A DNA stretch of 56,451 bases from a virus. This document shows positions 32,483-40,041 of the stretch, piece by piece (positions within the stretch are counted from its first letter, which is position 1; each line of letters opens with the position of its first letter). The stretch spans positions 1 through 56,451 of the IMG/VR virus record IMGVR_UViG_3300026518_000669; one strand, given 5' to 3'. Made by a program: the position numbers and the translations under genes. Below the pieces are notes generated by a model that was given only the letters and a program-made list of their open reading frames with translations, had not been told where the DNA came from and did no database searches.

Positions 32483-34366
32483 ATGCCGGAAATTTACGCG
32501 AACAACGCTCGCGGCAAGCTAGCTTCTCCTGTCACGGCAGGGGATCAAAGCCTGCCCCTTGAGGCGGGCCATTCTTTCCCAGATCCGGGCGGTGATTGGT
32601 ACCGCGCGACGCTTTATCGCTGGGAGTTTGCGAGTGACGGCATCCGTGAATTTGACCACGAGATCGTTAAGGTGACCGCGCTCTCATCCAATACAATGAC
32701 AGTTGAGCGCAGCCAAGAGGGTACGGTGGCATTCGCCTATGACCCTGGCACGCCTGTTGAGCTGCGCATGACAGCGGGCAGCCTGGCCGAGAAGCCTGCA
32801 GATACGCTTGCGGTGATGCAGTCGCTCACTTCACCGCCTGAAATTCGCGATATCGATACTTGGTCGATTGATGCCACGGCCATTAGTCGCCAGAGCGGTG
32901 GCAGTATCGCGTCGTTTGAGGTGACGTGGTGGGACGGCAGTACCGAAGCAGTGGCGGCAGCTGGCGGCGCGGCCACGCTCTCCAGAGCGGTGGATCAGCC
33001 AGTAGGAGGTGTCGTTTCAGCAACCGTGCGAGCGCTTGACGACATCGGCAATGCCAGCGCACCCGAGACCGTTACGGCTGATGTAGTTGCCAACCGCGTG
33101 CCGGAAGGCCCTGTTGTGATAAGCGCGCCCACCCAGACCGGCAAGAACAGCACGTTCCAAGTTTCTTTTAGTGGCGCGACCGACCCGGACGGCGATTCGA
33201 TCAGCTACACGATCACTGACACAGGCGCGTTCACCTTTGCCAAGACGTCGGGCATTGCTGGCGGAGAGATTGTAGAAGTCACGGCGCCCGATGTTACTGA
33301 CGATATCGCTATCACGTTTAGCGTGAAGGCAGTGGACAGCCTTGGCGCCTCGACAGCCACCTATAGCGAAACAGTGACCGTGCTGGCTGCCCAGGTTATT
33401 GGCGTCGCGCTGCGCGCCACGGGCGGCCCTGGCGGTACGTGGGATCATATCGACGATACCGGCGCAACCATTGCCACTCCTAGCGCCTCCTGGTTTAACG
33501 CTCATCCTATTTTTGGCGGCATGCAAGATGTCACGGTGGATGGTCAGGCTATGGTCGAAGTGCCGAAATTCTACGTAAAGCGCGGCACCGCAGGCGGCGA
33601 CCCCGCGTGGTGGATTAGCGACCAACCGCTGGCGGGGTATGAGGTGCATCCTGCGTTTCTGCTAGATGGCGTCGAGGTGCCCGCGTTTCAGTACGGCAAA
33701 TATCAGGCATCGCTCAGCGGCGGCAAGCTGCAGTCTGTGCCGGGCGTTACGCCAACGGCATCGCGCAGCTTGACGCAGTTCCTGGCAGATGCCGAGGCCC
33801 GTAACGTGGGCGGCGTCGCTGGCTTTAGGCTGCACCACTACGACATGTGGCTGGCCATTCAGTGGTTATACCTGGTCGAAAACGCGACGATGGATAGCCA
33901 AACGAAAACGGGCGAGGGCCGCGTTAATCAGTCCAGCGCCGCCGCTGTCGATGCCGCTGACGTAGCCCAAGCGACGTATCGCGGCATCGTTGGGCTATGG
34001 GGTAACGTCTATCAGTGGATGGACGGAGCCCGTACGCTCAATAGTGTCATTGAGCGGCGTGACTATAACGGCGCGTGGCAAAGTACGGGCGAGAGCGTTC
34101 CTAACGCTGGTGCCGCCACTTACCCCATCACGTTCCGCAATTCAGCCCCGCTAGAATTTATCCCCGACACCTATTCAACCAGTAACGACAGCACCGCCAC
34201 GCTGCCGGACTACGTGCGGTGGCGTGATGCTGGGGAGTATTACCCCTACGTCGGCGGCTACTGGAGCGTTGGCGCGATTGCCGGGCTTTGGTACGTGTAC
34301 TGCGGCAATTCGGCGTCGAGCTCGAGCAGCTTCATCGGGGCGCGTCTCGCGAGGGTCGTGTCATGA
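32483..34366 (+). CDS. DGR-diversified tail/receptor-binding protein
   Basis: The 627-residue protein has an N-terminal tail-attachment beta domain (~1-105), a cadherin/fibronectin-like module (~205-300, GATDPDGDSISYTITD) and a C-terminal formylglycine-enzyme/C-type-lectin fold (~380-627, GIVGLWGNVYQWMDGA). The last 40 residues are encoded by the variable repeat. Residues matching template Asn codons are Y593, V596, I599, Y606, G608, N609, S613, S615 and F617, on the face that binds ligand in this class. It would be the receptor-binding tip, diversified by the adjacent reverse transcriptase. The stop overlaps the avd start (ATGA). Confidence 0.93.
   Translation: MPEIYANNARGKLASPVTAGDQSLPLEAGHSFPDPGGDWYRATLYRWEFASDGIREFDHEIVKVTALSSNTMTVERSQEGTVAFAYDPGTPVELRMTAGSLAEKPADTLAVMQSLTSPPEIRDIDTWSIDATAISRQSGGSIASFEVTWWDGSTEAVAAAGGAATLSRAVDQPVGGVVSATVRALDDIGNASAPETVTADVVANRVPEGPVVISAPTQTGKNSTFQVSFSGATDPDGDSISYTITDTGAFTFAKTSGIAGGEIVEVTAPDVTDDIAITFSVKAVDSLGASTATYSETVTVLAAQVIGVALRATGGPGGTWDHIDDTGATIATPSASWFNAHPIFGGMQDVTVDGQAMVEVPKFYVKRGTAGGDPAWWISDQPLAGYEVHPAFLLDGVEVPAFQYGKYQASLSGGKLQSVPGVTPTASRSLTQFLADAEARNVGGVAGFRLHHYDMWLAIQWLYLVENATMDSQTKTGEGRVNQSSAAAVDAADVAQATYRGIVGLWGNVYQWMDGARTLNSVIERRDYNGAWQSTGESVPNAGAATYPITFRNSAPLEFIPDTYSTSNDSTATLPDYVRWRDAGEYYPYVGGYWSVGAIAGLWYVYCGNSASSSSSFIGARLARVVS
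34243..34353 (+). repeat. DGR variable repeat (VR)
   Basis: This 111-base segment at the end of the tail-protein gene aligns without gaps to 34809-34919. It differs at 11 sites, each an adenine in the template (six now T, five now G). The GC-rich last 20 bases are identical and would be the initiation-of-mutagenic-homing region. Confidence 0.95.
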
Positions 34367-34776
34367 GTCAGGCAAATCAGCGTCAAGCTCAGGGGCGCGG
34401 TAGCGCCCCGTACCAACACCTTCGACCCTTTGAGGGCATGCTCACTAAGGTGGAAGAGCTGGAAGATTACAGTCGTCGAGCCCTGGTGAATTTTCCGAAA
34501 AGTGAGCGACACTTGCTCAGCGCGGAGGTGCGGCTGTGTATTGAGCGCATCGAGCGAATCACGCTTACTGCATGGAAGCGCTATCAGAAGAAAACCACCC
34601 TCACCGACTTGGATATTGAGATAGAGATACTACGCCGCAAGGTGCGCAAGGCCGAGCGGTACGGCTATATCTCAGGTCGCCAATATAGAGATTGGGCAGA
34701 ACACATAAGCGCTCTGGGGTCTATTCTTGGCGGCTGGCTGCGCCACGAACGGGCCAAGCAGGGCTATAGCAAGTAG
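34363..34776 (+). CDS. avd: DGR accessory variability determinant (Avd)
   Basis: The 137-residue basic protein is nearly all helical (MLTKVEELEDYSRRALVNFP, LCIERIERITLTAWKRYQKK, IEILRRKVRKAERYGYIS, ISALGSILGGWLRHERAKQG). This is the four-helix-bundle pattern of Avd, which forms a pentamer that binds the reverse transcriptase and template RNA. Its position between the variable repeat and template repeat, and its size, match Bordetella phage Avd. The ATG at 34363 overlaps the fibre stop; a frame opening at 34288 runs through the variable repeat and is rejected. Confidence 0.92.
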   Translation: MSQANQRQAQGRGSAPYQHLRPFEGMLTKVEELEDYSRRALVNFPKSERHLLSAEVRLCIERIERITLTAWKRYQKKTTLTDLDIEIEILRRKVRKAERYGYISGRQYRDWAEHISALGSILGGWLRHERAKQGYSK

Positions 34777-34808
34777 AGCAAGAAAGGGAAGTCGCTTATT
34801 TCGATGTG

Positions 34809-34919
34809 CCCCTACGTCGGCGGCAACTGGAGCAATGGCGCGAATGCCGGGCTTTGGTACGTGAACTGCAACAATTCGGCGTCGAACTCGAACAGCAACA
34901 TCGGGGCGCGTCTCGCGAG
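34809..34919 (+). repeat. DGR template repeat (TR)
   Basis: This 111-base noncoding segment lies between avd and the reverse transcriptase. In the register of the tail gene it holds nine Asn codons (AAC/AAT), the codons that give widest change under adenine mutagenesis. Eight of the nine differ in the variable repeat. It has 24 adenines; 11 are changed. Confidence 0.95.
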
Positions 34920-34943
34920 CGACCGCTTTACCGGCCAGAAACC

Positions 34944-35043
34944 GCCCGCCTACGGGTTGGCGGGCAGTGCCACATCCCTCGGGGCGGCTTTCCTCGCTTC
35001 ACGGCGAAACATCAATAGAGCGCGGCGGCCTACGGGTGGCCGC
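34944..35043 (+). other. DGR spacer RNA with two hairpins sharing a loop
   Basis: Between template repeat and reverse transcriptase lie GCCCGCC-TACGGGTT-GGCGGGC (34944-34965) and GCGGCC-TACGGGT-GGCCGC (35025-35043). Both carry the loop TACGGGT although their stems differ. In known retroelements the spacer RNA binds the reverse transcriptase and primes cDNA synthesis. Confidence 0.65.
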
Positions 35044-35078
35044 GTTTCATTTTGCACAAACTGCATAAGGACAATGCG

Positions 35079-36125
35079 GTGTCGCTTTATCAAGACATTA
35101 TTGATTTCGATAACCTCATGCGCGGCTATCATGCCGCCAGAAAGCGCAAGCGCTACCGGCCAGAGGTGGTGAAATACACCGCCAACCTGGAAGAAAACCT
35201 CCTAAACCTTCACAACCACTTGGTTCACGAAACATGGCAACCGGGCCGCGCCAGAGAGTTTGTGGTGCTGGAGCCTAAAATGCGGATGATTCAAGCCCCA
35301 CCGTTTAAAGATCGGGTGCTGCATCACGCCGTGGTGGACTTGGTAGAACCACTATTTGAGCGCAGGTTTATCTATCACAGCTACGCCTGTCGCAAGGGAA
35401 AGGGCACCCAAGCAGGGGTGCTTGCTCTGCAACGCATGCTCAGAAAAGCTAAGCGGCGCTGGGATAGTGTGTACGTCGTACAGGCAGACGTAAGCAAGTT
35501 TTTCGACTCGCTGCCCCATGATGCCGTACTAGACAGTATTTCTCAGACGATTGACTGCCCAGATACACTGCAACTGTGGCGCGCCATGATACGCGGCTAT
35601 GGCCATGATGACGGCATCGGACAACCGGTGGGCGCGCTTAGCAGTCAGCTAAACGCTAACGCCACCCTAGATGGTGTCGACCATGAAATGACCGACGACC
35701 ACGGCGCAGGGCAATACGTGCGCTATATGGATGACATAGTGATCGTTTGCCCAAGCAAAGCCGAAGCCTGGCAGCGGCTACACCAGCTGCAAGCGGCGCT
35801 AGAGCGGCGCGGTCTATCACTCAACCCTAAAACCCAAGTACGCCCTGCCAGCGCGGGCGTGGATTGGTGCGGCTACCGCATATGGGCCACCCACATACTG
35901 CCCCGCAAGCGCAACATTCAGCGCTTTAAGCGCCGCCTGAAAATCCTACAGCGCCGTTATGCCCGAGGTGACGCCAGCCTGGACGAAGTGCAGCAACATC
36001 TACACGCCTTCCTGGCTTACGCCAAGCACTGCGATAGCTGGAATACCGTTAACCACCTAGTGGACCAACTCACCCTGAAGCGAGATTTTGCCGATGTCGA
36101 ATTTGCAGATTGTCACTACGCCTGA
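35079..36125 (+). CDS. brt: DGR reverse transcriptase
   Basis: The 348-residue enzyme has the retroelement palm: catalytic Asp137 in QADVSKFFDS, the DGR-specific VGALSSQ block (184-190) in place of the usual motif 4, YMDD at 216-219, and a C-terminal thumb (RFKRRLKILQRRYARG). It would copy the template RNA with errors at adenines; the cDNA replaces the variable repeat. I choose the GTG at 35079, which has TAAGGA seven bases upstream. An in-frame TTG at 35052 has no ribosome site and follows a hairpin directly. Confidence 0.95.
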   Translation: MSLYQDIIDFDNLMRGYHAARKRKRYRPEVVKYTANLEENLLNLHNHLVHETWQPGRAREFVVLEPKMRMIQAPPFKDRVLHHAVVDLVEPLFERRFIYHSYACRKGKGTQAGVLALQRMLRKAKRRWDSVYVVQADVSKFFDSLPHDAVLDSISQTIDCPDTLQLWRAMIRGYGHDDGIGQPVGALSSQLNANATLDGVDHEMTDDHGAGQYVRYMDDIVIVCPSKAEAWQRLHQLQAALERRGLSLNPKTQVRPASAGVDWCGYRIWATHILPRKRNIQRFKRRLKILQRRYARGDASLDEVQQHLHAFLAYAKHCDSWNTVNHLVDQLTLKRDFADVEFADCHYA

Positions 36126-36708
36126 CGGGCGCGCCCTTGAGCACGATGGGCAGCAAATCCCGCTGCCTGCGTTAGCCGTTGATGCCATTGTTCACGCTTA
36201 CGCTACCCCCGCTGGACTGTGGGCGGGCGTGCAGAAGCCCGGCGAGCCGCGCCCGGTCTATCCTGGCGGCGGTGGGCAAAAGCTGGGGAGCGTTGAGCTA
36301 GAGGCCGATGCGGTCGCACTGCTTGAGGCGGAGCGTAATCGTAAGCAGGCCGACTTAAACGCTGCGCGTGATGACGCCTTTGCGGCAGGGATGCTCTACC
36401 AGTTTGATAACGGCGACGATGTCGTTCAGACGCGCCCGCAAGATCAGATCAACCTTATAGGGTTGTCAGCGAAGGCACAGCGACAAATAGCGGCAGGTGA
36501 CAACACGCCAATGCCGTTTCGTGGCTTATCCAACGAAACGCGACTGTTAGAGCCTCGCGAGATGGACGCCATGGCTATGACCGCGCTTGCTCACATCGAA
36601 GGCATATACGCGCGAAGCTGGGCGAGAAAAGACGCTGTAGATGCAGCGACAACCCAGGCGGAGATCGACGCTATTAGCTGGGAGGTAGGCAGTGAAGATC
36701 CAGCATAG
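36094..36708 (+). CDS. Tail-fibre-associated protein, DUF4376-like
   Basis: The 204-residue protein has a small N-terminal beta domain (MSNLQIVTTPDGRALEHDGQ) and a DUF4376-like helical domain (~75-200: ERNRKQADLNAARDDAFAAG, YQFDNGDDVVQTRPQDQ, IDAISWEV). Such domains occur in fibre-assembly and tail proteins. The ATG at 36094 overlaps the end of the reverse-transcriptase gene. It may assist folding of, or attach to, the diversified fibre. Confidence 0.8.
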   Translation: MSNLQIVTTPDGRALEHDGQQIPLPALAVDAIVHAYATPAGLWAGVQKPGEPRPVYPGGGGQKLGSVELEADAVALLEAERNRKQADLNAARDDAFAAGMLYQFDNGDDVVQTRPQDQINLIGLSAKAQRQIAAGDNTPMPFRGLSNETRLLEPREMDAMAMTALAHIEGIYARSWARKDAVDAATTQAEIDAISWEVGSEDPA

Positions 36709-38359
36709 CGCCTTTCGTGGCGAGCTACCGATTCTTGATCCTCGCCTGCTGCCTGAGAATAACGCGCAGGTAGCGCGCAATGTTTACCTGAAGCGCGGCA
36801 CGCTGCGGCCTGAGAAAGCCCCTTCCACGGTGGTATCACTGCCAGGCGTTACCAGCCCCGCCAACTTGTACCACTATGACGTGGGTAGCGATGGCGATGG
36901 ATTCTGGTTTTCCTGGGGGCAGTCTTATGATGTTGACGTGGTTCGCTCGCCGATTGCCAGCGATGCTTATGCCCGGGTGTACTGGACAGGGCAGGGTCCG
37001 CCTAAAATGTCATCGCTCGATATGGCAACCGGCGGGAGTGGGCCATACCCCTCTAGCTGGTATCAGTTGGGCGTACCAGCACCCAGTGAAGCGCCCAGCG
37101 TTGCCACGCCATCTGATCGTGTCCCTCCCGAGCCTATCCGCAACGAACAAGGCGATGTGATTGAAGAGATCACGTTCCCGCCAAGAACCTCGCTGGAAAC
37201 CGTTTATGTAGTGACCTGCGTTACGCGCTTTGGTGAGGAAGGCCCGCCAAGCAATCCGTCTGGCTTTATTTCGCGCTGGGACAGTGGCGAAGATATTCCA
37301 GCAGGCGGCTCGGTTGAGGTAAGCCTGCCCAGCATTCCGAGCGGCAACTTTGATATTGTCGCCAAAAGGATTTACCGCGCAGAGAGCGGCGGGCAGTACC
37401 AAATGGTGGCCGAGGTAGACGCGTCGGCAGCGAGTTACACCGATGGCGTTAATTCAGCAGCGCTGGGCGTTACACTGCAAAGCCTGGAATGGGACATGCC
37501 GCCTGCACAGTTAACCGGCTTAACGCAGCTTCCTAACGGCATATTGGCAGGGTTCTTTGATAGCACCCTAGCGTTTAGCGAAGCCTATCGACCCCACGCC
37601 TGGCCAGTGGGTTACCAGCTGGCGTTCGATGATCCTATTGTCGGTATCGCATCGATCAGCGTCGGCTTGGTCGTTGTGACTACCGGGCAGCCCTGGCTGG
37701 TGACTGGCTCGAGCCCAGCCGCTATGTCGCAAATGCAGCTTGACGTTAACCAATCCTGCGTTGCCAAGCGCTCCCTGGTAGACATGGGCGGCTTTGCGCT
37801 CTACGCCTCTCCGGATGGTATTGTGGCGGCTGGTGGTGACGGCGCCCGAGTGGTAACGCGAGAGCTATTTACTCGCGAGCAGTGGCAAGCACTAAACCCT
37901 AGCACCATTCACGCGTACCGCCACGATGGCCGCTATCTAGCGTTTTACAGCGGTGGCTGCTTTGCGCTCACGCTGGGCCAGGGCGTGGAGTTTTACGACC
38001 TGAGCGCAAGCGGTGGTTACTACGATGTCACGCGCGACATACTGTATCTTATCCAAGGCGGCAGCGTTTCAGCCTGGGGTGAGGGTGAGGCCATGACGTA
38101 TACATGGCGGTCACGACTACACGAAATACCGCCAGGCGCTGCAGGGTTTAGCTGTGCCAAGGTGATTGCTAGCCAGTATCCGGTAACGCTTCGCGTGATT
38201 GCCGATGGAGAGATGGTTCTTGAGCATGAGGTGATCGACGCACATCTCTTCCGATTGCCCGCAGGCTACACGCTGTCGCGAAACTGGGAAATTGAAGTGT
38301 CCGGCAGCCACGAAGTGCACTCCGTGCAAGTCTCAACGTCGCCGGGAGAGCTCATTTAA
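36692..38359 (+). CDS. Large virion protein, unknown function
   Basis: The 555-residue protein begins MKIQHSAFRGELPILDPRLL and is beta-rich, with repeated propeller-like segments (FALYASPDGIVAAGGDGARV, HAYRHDGRYLAFYSGGCF, DVTRDILYLIQGGSVS). A C-terminal beta domain (SCAKVIASQYPVTLRVIADG) follows. Proteins of this start and length occur in tail regions of podoviruses and are taken as tail or stopper components. The GTG start at 36692 has GGGAGG six bases upstream. Confidence 0.74.
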   Translation: MKIQHSAFRGELPILDPRLLPENNAQVARNVYLKRGTLRPEKAPSTVVSLPGVTSPANLYHYDVGSDGDGFWFSWGQSYDVDVVRSPIASDAYARVYWTGQGPPKMSSLDMATGGSGPYPSSWYQLGVPAPSEAPSVATPSDRVPPEPIRNEQGDVIEEITFPPRTSLETVYVVTCVTRFGEEGPPSNPSGFISRWDSGEDIPAGGSVEVSLPSIPSGNFDIVAKRIYRAESGGQYQMVAEVDASAASYTDGVNSAALGVTLQSLEWDMPPAQLTGLTQLPNGILAGFFDSTLAFSEAYRPHAWPVGYQLAFDDPIVGIASISVGLVVVTTGQPWLVTGSSPAAMSQMQLDVNQSCVAKRSLVDMGGFALYASPDGIVAAGGDGARVVTRELFTREQWQALNPSTIHAYRHDGRYLAFYSGGCFALTLGQGVEFYDLSASGGYYDVTRDILYLIQGGSVSAWGEGEAMTYTWRSRLHEIPPGAAGFSCAKVIASQYPVTLRVIADGEMVLEHEVIDAHLFRLPAGYTLSRNWEIEVSGSHEVHSVQVSTSPGELI

Positions 38360-38367
38360 TAACGCCT

Positions 38368-38379
38368 AGCCGTGAGGCT
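38368..38379 (+). other. GTGA-loop hairpin
   Basis: AGCC-GTGA-GGCT ends three bases before the ATG at 38383. Its GAGG is the only evident ribosome site. Confidence 0.62.
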
Positions 38380-38382
38380 CGC

Positions 38383-40041
38383 ATGAATAATCGACGTAAG
38401 ACGCTGCCCCCGATTGACCCCAAGACCGACCCGAAGCTGCGCCCGCTTCTCGAAGCGCTTAAGGAAATCACTGAAACCGGTGACGGCGTGCGCGGTGATC
38501 CTATGGATCGCAAGCTGACGATTCGCGACTTGGTGGATGCAGGGCTAGCCCGCCTCAGGCCAGGCAGCATGACGGAGTTTGGCCCCGCTGATGACGAGGC
38601 CATCGACAACGACCCGCCTGGTTCAACGCTGATTCCGCCGCGCCCAACAGGCTTTAACGCTATCGGAAGCTTTGGCTATATTGTGCTGTCCTGGGATATT
38701 CCCGGTGACCAGTATCTTAATCATGCCTTTACCAATATCTATCGCAGCGAGACCGACAACTTCGCTAATGCGGAGATGATAGGCCGCGATACTGGGATGA
38801 TGTATACCGATCATATCCGAGAGGTTGAGGAGGATGGCGTTGGGTTTTACTACTGGATCACCTTTACCAGCACGGAGGACAGGGAAGGGCCAGCCAACAG
38901 CACTAGCGGTACCTATGCCGAAGTCATTCCGGATATTGGTTTTTTACTGGATAAGCTTTCTGGCCAGGTAAACGAAGAGGTGTTGACGCCTGCTTTTAAA
39001 AATAGGCTTAATGGCTTTCAGGAAACAATCAGTGATTTAGGCGACCGTTATACGCTGTCGGTGACCAATAACGGGTACGTTTCTGGCTTTACCATCTTCA
39101 ATACTGGGCAGCAAAGCGACTTCGCTGTCTTGGCCGACCGCTTTACGATAGCCAATCAGTTTGGCGATGAACGTCATCCATTCTTTGTGACCGGCGGAAA
39201 GACCTACATTGATACCGCATTTATCAGAAACGCCTCTATCCAAGAAGGCCAGCTTGGCCCTATATCGTTTGGCAAAATAACCGATAGTCGCGGGAATCCT
39301 GTTACTACCGTTGCAGGCAAGCTAAAGGGTGAGCTGATTGAGGCGGATAATTTAAGCGTTGCTGAAGCAGCAAAGTTTTATGGCAACGTTTTTTCAAATA
39401 ATTTTCGGTCAGGTGTTTCTGGCTGGGCGATATACCAGAGCGGTAACTTCGAGCTAAACGAGGGGCGCATTAGAAACTCGGTTCAGATTGGCAATACGAC
39501 GGCTGGCGATATAGCTCAGGGCGTAGGTAGTATTAATAACTGGAAGCGCCCTAACTCTACTCTTATTGATGGCAATAAGATTTTCACCGGCGATGCATAC
39601 GTCGATACTTTGCAGATCAAGGGTGAAGCTGTAACAGTGCCTGTGGCTTCTTTCACTGAATCTGGGATAAGTTTAGGTACTAACTGGACTACCGTACAAA
39701 CACTTTGGGTTAGTCGTGCCAATGCTCCTATACATCTGACGTTTGGTTGTTCTTGTCGCGCAGACGACTCATCGTCGGCAGTTGCCGATGCGTCTGTATC
39801 TGCCCGGTTGGTAATAAACTATCGGGAGGCTGCGGTCTATAACACAATCGTCAGTGACTCTGCTAGGGCATATAACACCGGTTCGGGGACTGTATTTGCG
39901 CGCGCACGTGGCTTGTTTTCGGGAGGCTATCTGTTAGGCGCTGGTACTGGCGCAGCTATAGTGCAAATACAACTGTCCCGAACTGGAAACTCGGGTGGTG
40001 CCTTTAATCGCTTCATTCAAGCACTTACCGTTAAGAGGTAA
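38383..40041 (+). CDS. Tail-tip protein with fibronectin-III and gpJ-like segments
   Basis: The 552-residue protein has a proline-rich start, a fibronectin-III-like domain (~85-165: RPTGFNAIGSFGYIVLSWDI) and a segment typical of lambda J C termini (RYTLSVTNNGYVSGFTIFNT, DFAVLADRFTIA, ~225-270). A beta-rich tip ends in NRFIQALTVKR. J-like tip pieces are usual in siphoviruses, so their presence here suggests modular exchange. It probably contributes to host contact. Codon use becomes more AT-rich towards its end. Confidence 0.8.
   Translation: MNNRRKTLPPIDPKTDPKLRPLLEALKEITETGDGVRGDPMDRKLTIRDLVDAGLARLRPGSMTEFGPADDEAIDNDPPGSTLIPPRPTGFNAIGSFGYIVLSWDIPGDQYLNHAFTNIYRSETDNFANAEMIGRDTGMMYTDHIREVEEDGVGFYYWITFTSTEDREGPANSTSGTYAEVIPDIGFLLDKLSGQVNEEVLTPAFKNRLNGFQETISDLGDRYTLSVTNNGYVSGFTIFNTGQQSDFAVLADRFTIANQFGDERHPFFVTGGKTYIDTAFIRNASIQEGQLGPISFGKITDSRGNPVTTVAGKLKGELIEADNLSVAEAAKFYGNVFSNNFRSGVSGWAIYQSGNFELNEGRIRNSVQIGNTTAGDIAQGVGSINNWKRPNSTLIDGNKIFTGDAYVDTLQIKGEAVTVPVASFTESGISLGTNWTTVQTLWVSRANAPIHLTFGCSCRADDSSSAVADASVSARLVINYREAAVYNTIVSDSARAYNTGSGTVFARARGLFSGGYLLGAGTGAAIVQIQLSRTGNSGGAFNRFIQALTVKR

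What the first reader, a model, noticed from the sequence alone, without database searches (positions are those of the whole stretch)
34243..34919. All 11 differences between the two repeats fall on template adenines
Over 111 aligned bases (offset 566) the mismatches are at template 34825, 34834, 34835, 34844, 34864, 34870, 34871, 34886, 34892, 34897 and 34898, every one an A (six to T, five to G). All lie in positions 1-2 of Asn codons; six other adenines (Tyr, Ser, Ile and other codons) are unchanged. This shows past adenine-directed homing, plus either selection or context preference.
Basis: seen in the sequence. Interest (0 to 1): 0.9.

Follow-up and report, generated by a model that had tools for sequence, protein, structure and literature searches.

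The report
Phage receptor-diversifying retroelement (DGR)
This phage carries a complete diversity-generating retroelement, a known machine that keeps rewriting the tip of a tail protein by copying a template and scrambling its adenines; near-identical phages from other samples carry the same template but different scrambled copies, so the machine has worked recently, but the system itself is of a well-known kind.

Summary
The locus is a canonical diversity-generating retroelement (DGR) of a temperate phage, in the BPP-1 order target-VR / avd / TR / RT. The target folds like solved DGR variable proteins, and a GC hairpin with a GRNA loop lies 38 bp after VR. Relatives settle the mechanism. A sister phage has an identical TR but a different VR (11/111 differences, against 23/9986 elsewhere in 10 kb). 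Across 42 distinct TR/VR pairs, 488 of 503 mismatches are at template adenines. Zero of six non-Asn changes in one allele is compatible with chance (P about 0.07). What remains is a lower rate at Ser AGY codons (8/42), in an A-before-G context, and no change in the last two bases of the repeat (0/55). New member of a known kind.

The parts
32483..34366 (+). DGR target gene: 627-aa tail protein with a C-terminal C-type-lectin/formylglycine-generating-enzyme-like fold
   Evidence: phrog_5302 tail protein 7e-41; AlphaFold model of the last 330 aa, pLDDT 84.6, matches TaqVP 5vf4 Z 26.0, TvpA 2y3c Z 14.1, Mtd 1yu0 Z 12.6
34243..34353 (+). Variable repeat (VR), the 3' end of the target gene
   Evidence: 90% identical to TR, 11 mismatches all at TR adenines; hypervariable among sister phages
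34336..34353 (+). Invariant 3' end of VR, IMH-like (limits approximate): adenines in the last 2 nt of the repeat never change
   Evidence: 0/55 at 1-2 nt from the repeat end against about 50% at 20-23 nt in relatives
34392..34409 (+). GC-rich hairpin/cruciform GGGGCGC-GGTA-GCGCCCC, GRNA loop, 38 bp after VR, inside avd
   Evidence: kept 38-40 bp after VR in the window's clade with changed but still paired stems; matches the element of Guo et al. 2011 (PMC3240598)
34363..34776 (+). avd, accessory variability determinant; start overlaps the target's stop
   Evidence: PF22296 bAvd 2.6e-19; phrog_3206 Avd protein of DGR 5e-27
34809..34919 (+). Template repeat (TR): nine AAY codons; no A>N change can create a stop in the target frame
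   Evidence: identical in four sister contigs with different VRs
35079..36125 (+). DGR reverse transcriptase (GTG start with AAGGA upstream; YMDD; VGALSSQ motif)
   Evidence: RVT_1 3e-24; phrog_1423 1e-110; profile best PDB match 8ub7 reverse transcriptase 8e-64; 33.8% identical to BPP-1 brt
33077..36300 (+). Exchangeable module: target C-terminal domain + avd + TR + RT + 5' end of the next gene, shared with an otherwise unrelated tape-measure-bearing phage (L003)
   Evidence: blastn L003 aligns only here, 93.5% over 3224 bp; L003 upstream gene is a tape measure protein

Best explanation
A complete, recently active diversity-generating retroelement in a temperate phage. TR RNA is reverse-transcribed by the RT with Avd, with frequent misincorporation opposite template adenines. 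The cDNA replaces the VR at the 3' end of the tail-protein gene, giving new variants of a C-type-lectin receptor-binding surface. The 3' end of the repeat and a downstream hairpin mark the recipient. Shown here: anatomy, adenine specificity, a constant TR over changing VRs, and a fixed 3' end. Inferred from the BPP-1 paradigm: the biochemical steps, Avd's role, the hairpin's role and a receptor-binding function.
For: All 11 mismatches at TR A, P 5e-9. Gene families avd and DGR-type RT beside it. The same order as BPP-1 mtd-VR / bbp7 / TR / brt. Sister L004: VR differs at 11/111, TR at 0/111, the rest at 23/9986. Four sisters with an identical TR carry different VRs, all mismatches at TR A. In 42 distinct related TR/VR pairs, 488 of 503 mismatches are at TR A. 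Non-A TR differences between relatives are mirrored in their own VRs in 255 of 264 pairwise comparisons. In L014 a TR position that is C in its relatives is A, and its VR there is G. Hairpin with GRNA loop after VR. Target fold best matched by DGR variable proteins.
Against: No expression or homing was measured. 15 of 503 mismatches in relatives are not at TR A. The hairpin gap (38 bp) is slightly beyond the 4-34 bp quoted by Guo et al. The A>C excess in NAC context measured for BPP-1 RT in E. coli (PMC12875486) is not seen in these natural alleles (27/161 against 43/268).
Confidence: 0.97

Rival explanations
1. The 11 changes reflect an intrinsic or selective restriction of the machine to Asn codons; adenines in Tyr, Ser and Ile codons are exempt.
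For: 0 of 6 non-Asn adenines against 11 of 18 Asn adenines changed in the window allele (one-sided hypergeometric about 0.013, computed by hand). AG-context adenines change less in relatives: Ser AGY 8/42, p 2e-5; GAG 0/10.
Against: Tyr 34814 and 34859 each vary in 4 of 5 sister contigs (3 of 4 distinct alleles) and Ile 34900 in L003; L029 changes Ser 34831 and Ile 34900. Across 42 pairs Tyr 24/49 and Ile 11/23 equal Asn 384/729.
Confidence: 0.05
2. Simple duplication of the 3' end of the gene followed by ordinary divergence.
For: Two direct repeats 566 bp apart.
Against: Divergence confined to one base of one copy; one copy constant and the other hypervariable among sisters; avd and DGR RT adjacent.
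Confidence: 0.005
3. A dead DGR: homing happened in the past but no longer operates.
For: No direct assay; a single record cannot show present activity.
Against: RT, avd, TR, VR and hairpin are intact, and sister phages with a 99.7% identical backbone carry different VR alleles.
Confidence: 0.02

Closest known systems
Bordetella phage BPP-1 DGR (mtd-VR, avd/bbp7, TR, brt)
   Same: Same order and orientation of parts, adenine-directed TR/VR mismatches, C-type-lectin target, GC hairpin with GRNA loop after VR, temperate phage host
   Different: RT only 33.8% identical; target resembles TaqVP more than Mtd (Z 26 against 12.6); repeat 111 nt against 134 nt annotated; TR and VR identical to the end of the repeat, where BPP-1 IMH and its TR counterpart differ at five positions (PMC3240598); hairpin 38 bp from VR and inside avd; no A>C excess in NAC context
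TaqVP, Thermus aquaticus DGR variable protein (5vf4)
   Same: Closest solved fold to the target's C-terminal 330 aa, Z 26.0, 24% identity over 248 residues
   Different: A different organism and DGR; the N-terminal parts of the phage target were not compared by fold
DGRs of Vibrio phage 1F273_PE002 and Aeromonas phage phiWae15
   Same: Target, avd, TR and RT in the same order with adenine-restricted TR/VR mismatches
   Different: RT about 39-41% identical; no near nucleotide match to the window in phage records

Membership tests
Diversity-generating retroelement (DGR) | TR/VR near-identical repeats with mismatches confined to TR adenines | tested here: met
   11/11 in the window; 488/503 in 42 related pairs
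Diversity-generating retroelement (DGR) | Adjacent reverse transcriptase of the DGR type | tested here: met
   PF00078, phrog_1423, best PDB profile match 8ub7
Diversity-generating retroelement (DGR) | Accessory protein Avd | tested here: met
   PF22296 2.6e-19, phrog_3206 5e-27
Diversity-generating retroelement (DGR) | VR at the 3' end of a target gene with a C-type-lectin (or other DGR variable protein) fold | tested here: met
   AlphaFold model against PDB: TaqVP, TvpA, Mtd
Diversity-generating retroelement (DGR) | Constant TR over variable VRs in independent relatives | tested here: met
Diversity-generating retroelement (DGR) | Hairpin/cruciform with GRNA loop downstream of VR | tested here: met
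   34392-34409, conserved in the window's clade; loop not GRNA in the more distant L011-L016 group
Diversity-generating retroelement (DGR) | RT-dependent mutagenic homing in cells | not testable with these tools
   needs a homing assay with wild-type and RT-dead alleles

The most novel reading that the evidence does not exclude
In this phage group the template itself is sometimes rewritten from the variable copy or by its own cDNA, so the 'master' copy drifts adenine by adenine and mutable positions become fixed. L006 TR differs from the TR shared by L007 and L009 at 9 sites, seven of them A>T and 7 of 9 shared with its own VR, while the other 1.79 kb compared with L007 holds 4 differences. 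L005 TR carries 7 adenine changes identical to its own VR.
Probability: 0.15. Interest if true: 0.5.

Novelty: new member of a known kind. Interest (0 to 1): 0.25.

Why it matters
It is a clean natural record of DGR activity: several VR alleles over one unchanged TR in near-identical phages, and 42 related pairs from which the natural adenine spectrum can be read. It corrects the idea that only Asn codons are mutable. It shows that the whole cassette, with the receptor-binding domain, moves between unrelated phage types. The DGR mechanism itself is long known from BPP-1.

Tried and rejected
Asn-only restriction: rejected from the allele data. Selection against context at Ser AGY: not resolved; synonymous third-position adenines before G (GCA|G) changed in 2 of 5, too few to decide. 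BPP-1 RT's A>C excess in NAC context: looked for, not found (27/161 against 43/268); its preference for A>T at the first A of AAC is seen (67/171 against 26/133, p 3e-4). Second VR elsewhere in the window record: none. Avd against solved structures by single sequence: no match.

Full report
Observation. The two repeats were found and realigned independently: 111 nt, offset 566, 11 mismatches, each at an adenine of the downstream copy (six A>T, five A>G). With 24 A among 111 bases the chance of this is 5.3e-9. Outside the repeat similarity drops at once on both sides.

What it is. The upstream copy is the 3' end of a 627-aa tail-protein gene (32483-34366). Then come avd (34363-34776; PF22296, phrog_3206), the template repeat (34809-34919), and a reverse transcriptase (35079-36125; RVT_1, phrog_1423). 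A profile of the RT and nine relatives matches the reverse transcriptase 8ub7 best among solved structures, at 8e-64. The order is that of BPP-1: mtd with VR, bbp7, TR, brt. The target's last 330 residues were predicted with a 23-sequence alignment (pLDDT 84.6, pTM 0.89). The model matches TaqVP (Z 26.0), TvpA (Z 14.1) and Mtd (Z 12.6), all DGR variable proteins. An integrase, a CI-type repressor, a terminase, a major head protein and an internal virion protein mark a temperate tailed phage; the window is a viral record of 56,451 bases. No adenine change in the TR can make a stop codon in the target frame.

Recipient marks. 38 bp after VR, inside avd, lies GGGGCGC-GGTA-GCGCCCC (34392-34409), the only hairpin of the centroid fold. 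In relatives of the window's clade it is kept 38-40 bp after VR with different but still paired stems (GGGGCGT-GATA-ACGCCCC; GCGGCC-GGTA-GGCCGC). Guo et al. 2011 (PMC3240598) describe GC-rich 7-10 bp stems with GRNA loops after VR as required in BPP-1 and common in phage DGRs, at 4-34 bp. The more distant L011-L016 group has a GC stem at 40-42 bp but not a GRNA loop, and none was found in L013. Across relatives the adenines at 1-2 nt from the 3' end of the repeat never change (0/55), while those 20-23 nt away change about half the time. This places the end of replaced sequence within the last 18 or so bases; adenine 34918 falls in this unchanged end.

Independent alleles. L004 is 99.7% identical over 10,208 bp. 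It differs from the window at 11/111 in VR, 0/111 in TR and 23/9986 elsewhere. L003, L004, L010 and L017 have the window's TR exactly and different VRs (16, 10, 6 and 11 mismatches, all at TR A).

Scale and codon preference. 42 distinct TR/VR pairs were extracted from related loci, BPP-1 included: 488 of 503 mismatches are at TR adenines. The pairs were picked by a scan that requires at least 75% of mismatches at A, so this fraction is somewhat favoured by the selection. Rates by codon: Asn 384/729, Tyr 24/49 (p 0.66 against Asn), Ile 11/23, Thr 10/36, Ser AGY 8/42 (p 2e-5), and GAG 0/10. In the sister contigs both Tyr adenines vary in 4 of 5 (3 of 4 distinct alleles, as L005 and L017 share one VR) and the Ile adenine in one. 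L029 lacks its TR on the contig; against the window's TR its VR changes Ser 34831 and Ile 34900 and has an in-frame 3-nt insertion. Given leave-window-out rates, no change at two Tyr, two Ser, the Ile and the terminal site has P about 0.07 ((23/47)^2 x (32/40)^2 x 14/31 x 1). So the six unchanged adenines need no special explanation. What remains is a lower rate where A precedes G (18% against about 50%), with 9 of 10 changes A>G. BPP-1 RT in E. coli has almost no G misincorporation in NAG (0.08%; PMC12875486), which agrees with the absence of A>C there, but Ser-to-Gly selection would look alike. The counts treat alleles as independent, which related loci are not entirely.

Direction. Non-A differences between the TRs of different lineages appear in their own VRs in 255 of 264 pairwise comparisons (comparisons overlap, so this is not 264 events). 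At TR position 36 L014 has A where its relatives have C, and its VR has G. Together with the adenine restriction this fits copying from TR to VR with adenine errors.

Template change in relatives. L006 and L007 differ at 13 of 1900 bp after VR, 9 of them within the 109-bp TR. L007 and L009 share one TR; the more distant window TR has A at all seven sites where L006 has T, so the L006 state is the derived one (sequences). Seven of the nine L006 differences are A>T, and seven of nine are shared with its own VR. Sites 26 and 50 are not shared, so a plain collapse of its own VR onto TR does not explain the whole pattern, but a mix with another allele could. L005 TR has 7 changes, all at adenines and all equal to its VR, which is identical to the L017 VR; the 1.2 kb after VR is otherwise identical to L017. 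Each case rests on one metagenome contig (for L006 a pattern scan found no second one), and repeat collapse in assembly can produce the L005 pattern. I hold real template rewriting at about 0.15.

Mosaic. L003 matches the window only over 33077-36300 (93.5%) and has a tape-measure gene upstream. L008 shares 36678-39645 at 92% but has a DGR region only 72.6% identical. The DGR with the target's C-terminal domain is thus exchanged as a unit; Roux et al. 2021 (PMC8144416) had inferred transfers and intragenic recombination of targets in general.

Verdict. An ordinary, complete and evidently recently active phage DGR: a new member of a known kind.

Noticed in passing
L006:5717-5825 against L007:5587-5695: The template repeat itself differs at 9 sites (seven A>T) while the other 1.79 kb compared has 4 differences; 7 of the 9 are shared with the VR of L006.
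   Followed up: partly
L005:1514-1624: The 3' part of the TR carries 7 adenine changes identical to its own VR; back-transfer or assembly chimera.
   Followed up: partly
window 33077-36300; L003:3981-7204; L008: The DGR with the target's C-terminal domain is shared as a module between otherwise unrelated phages; the 3' limit is near 36300-36313 in several loci.
   Followed up: partly
L029:3878-3991: VR allele with an in-frame 3-nt insertion (extra AGC) near the end of VR; PMC12875486 mentions slippage in multiples of three in AAC repeats.
   Followed up: no
window 33385-33688 and 35504-35564: Differences between near-identical sisters cluster in two short tracts (target gene, RT), as after recombination.
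   Followed up: no
window 34944-34965 and 35025-35043: Two hairpins after TR with similar loops (TACGGGTT, TACGGGT), present in the window, L003 and L004 but not found in the more distant loci tested; possibly part of the DGR RNA.
   Followed up: no
L009:6001-7022: The RT frame of L009 holds stop codons in the translation tried, as after a frameshift, although TR and VR look normal.
   Followed up: no
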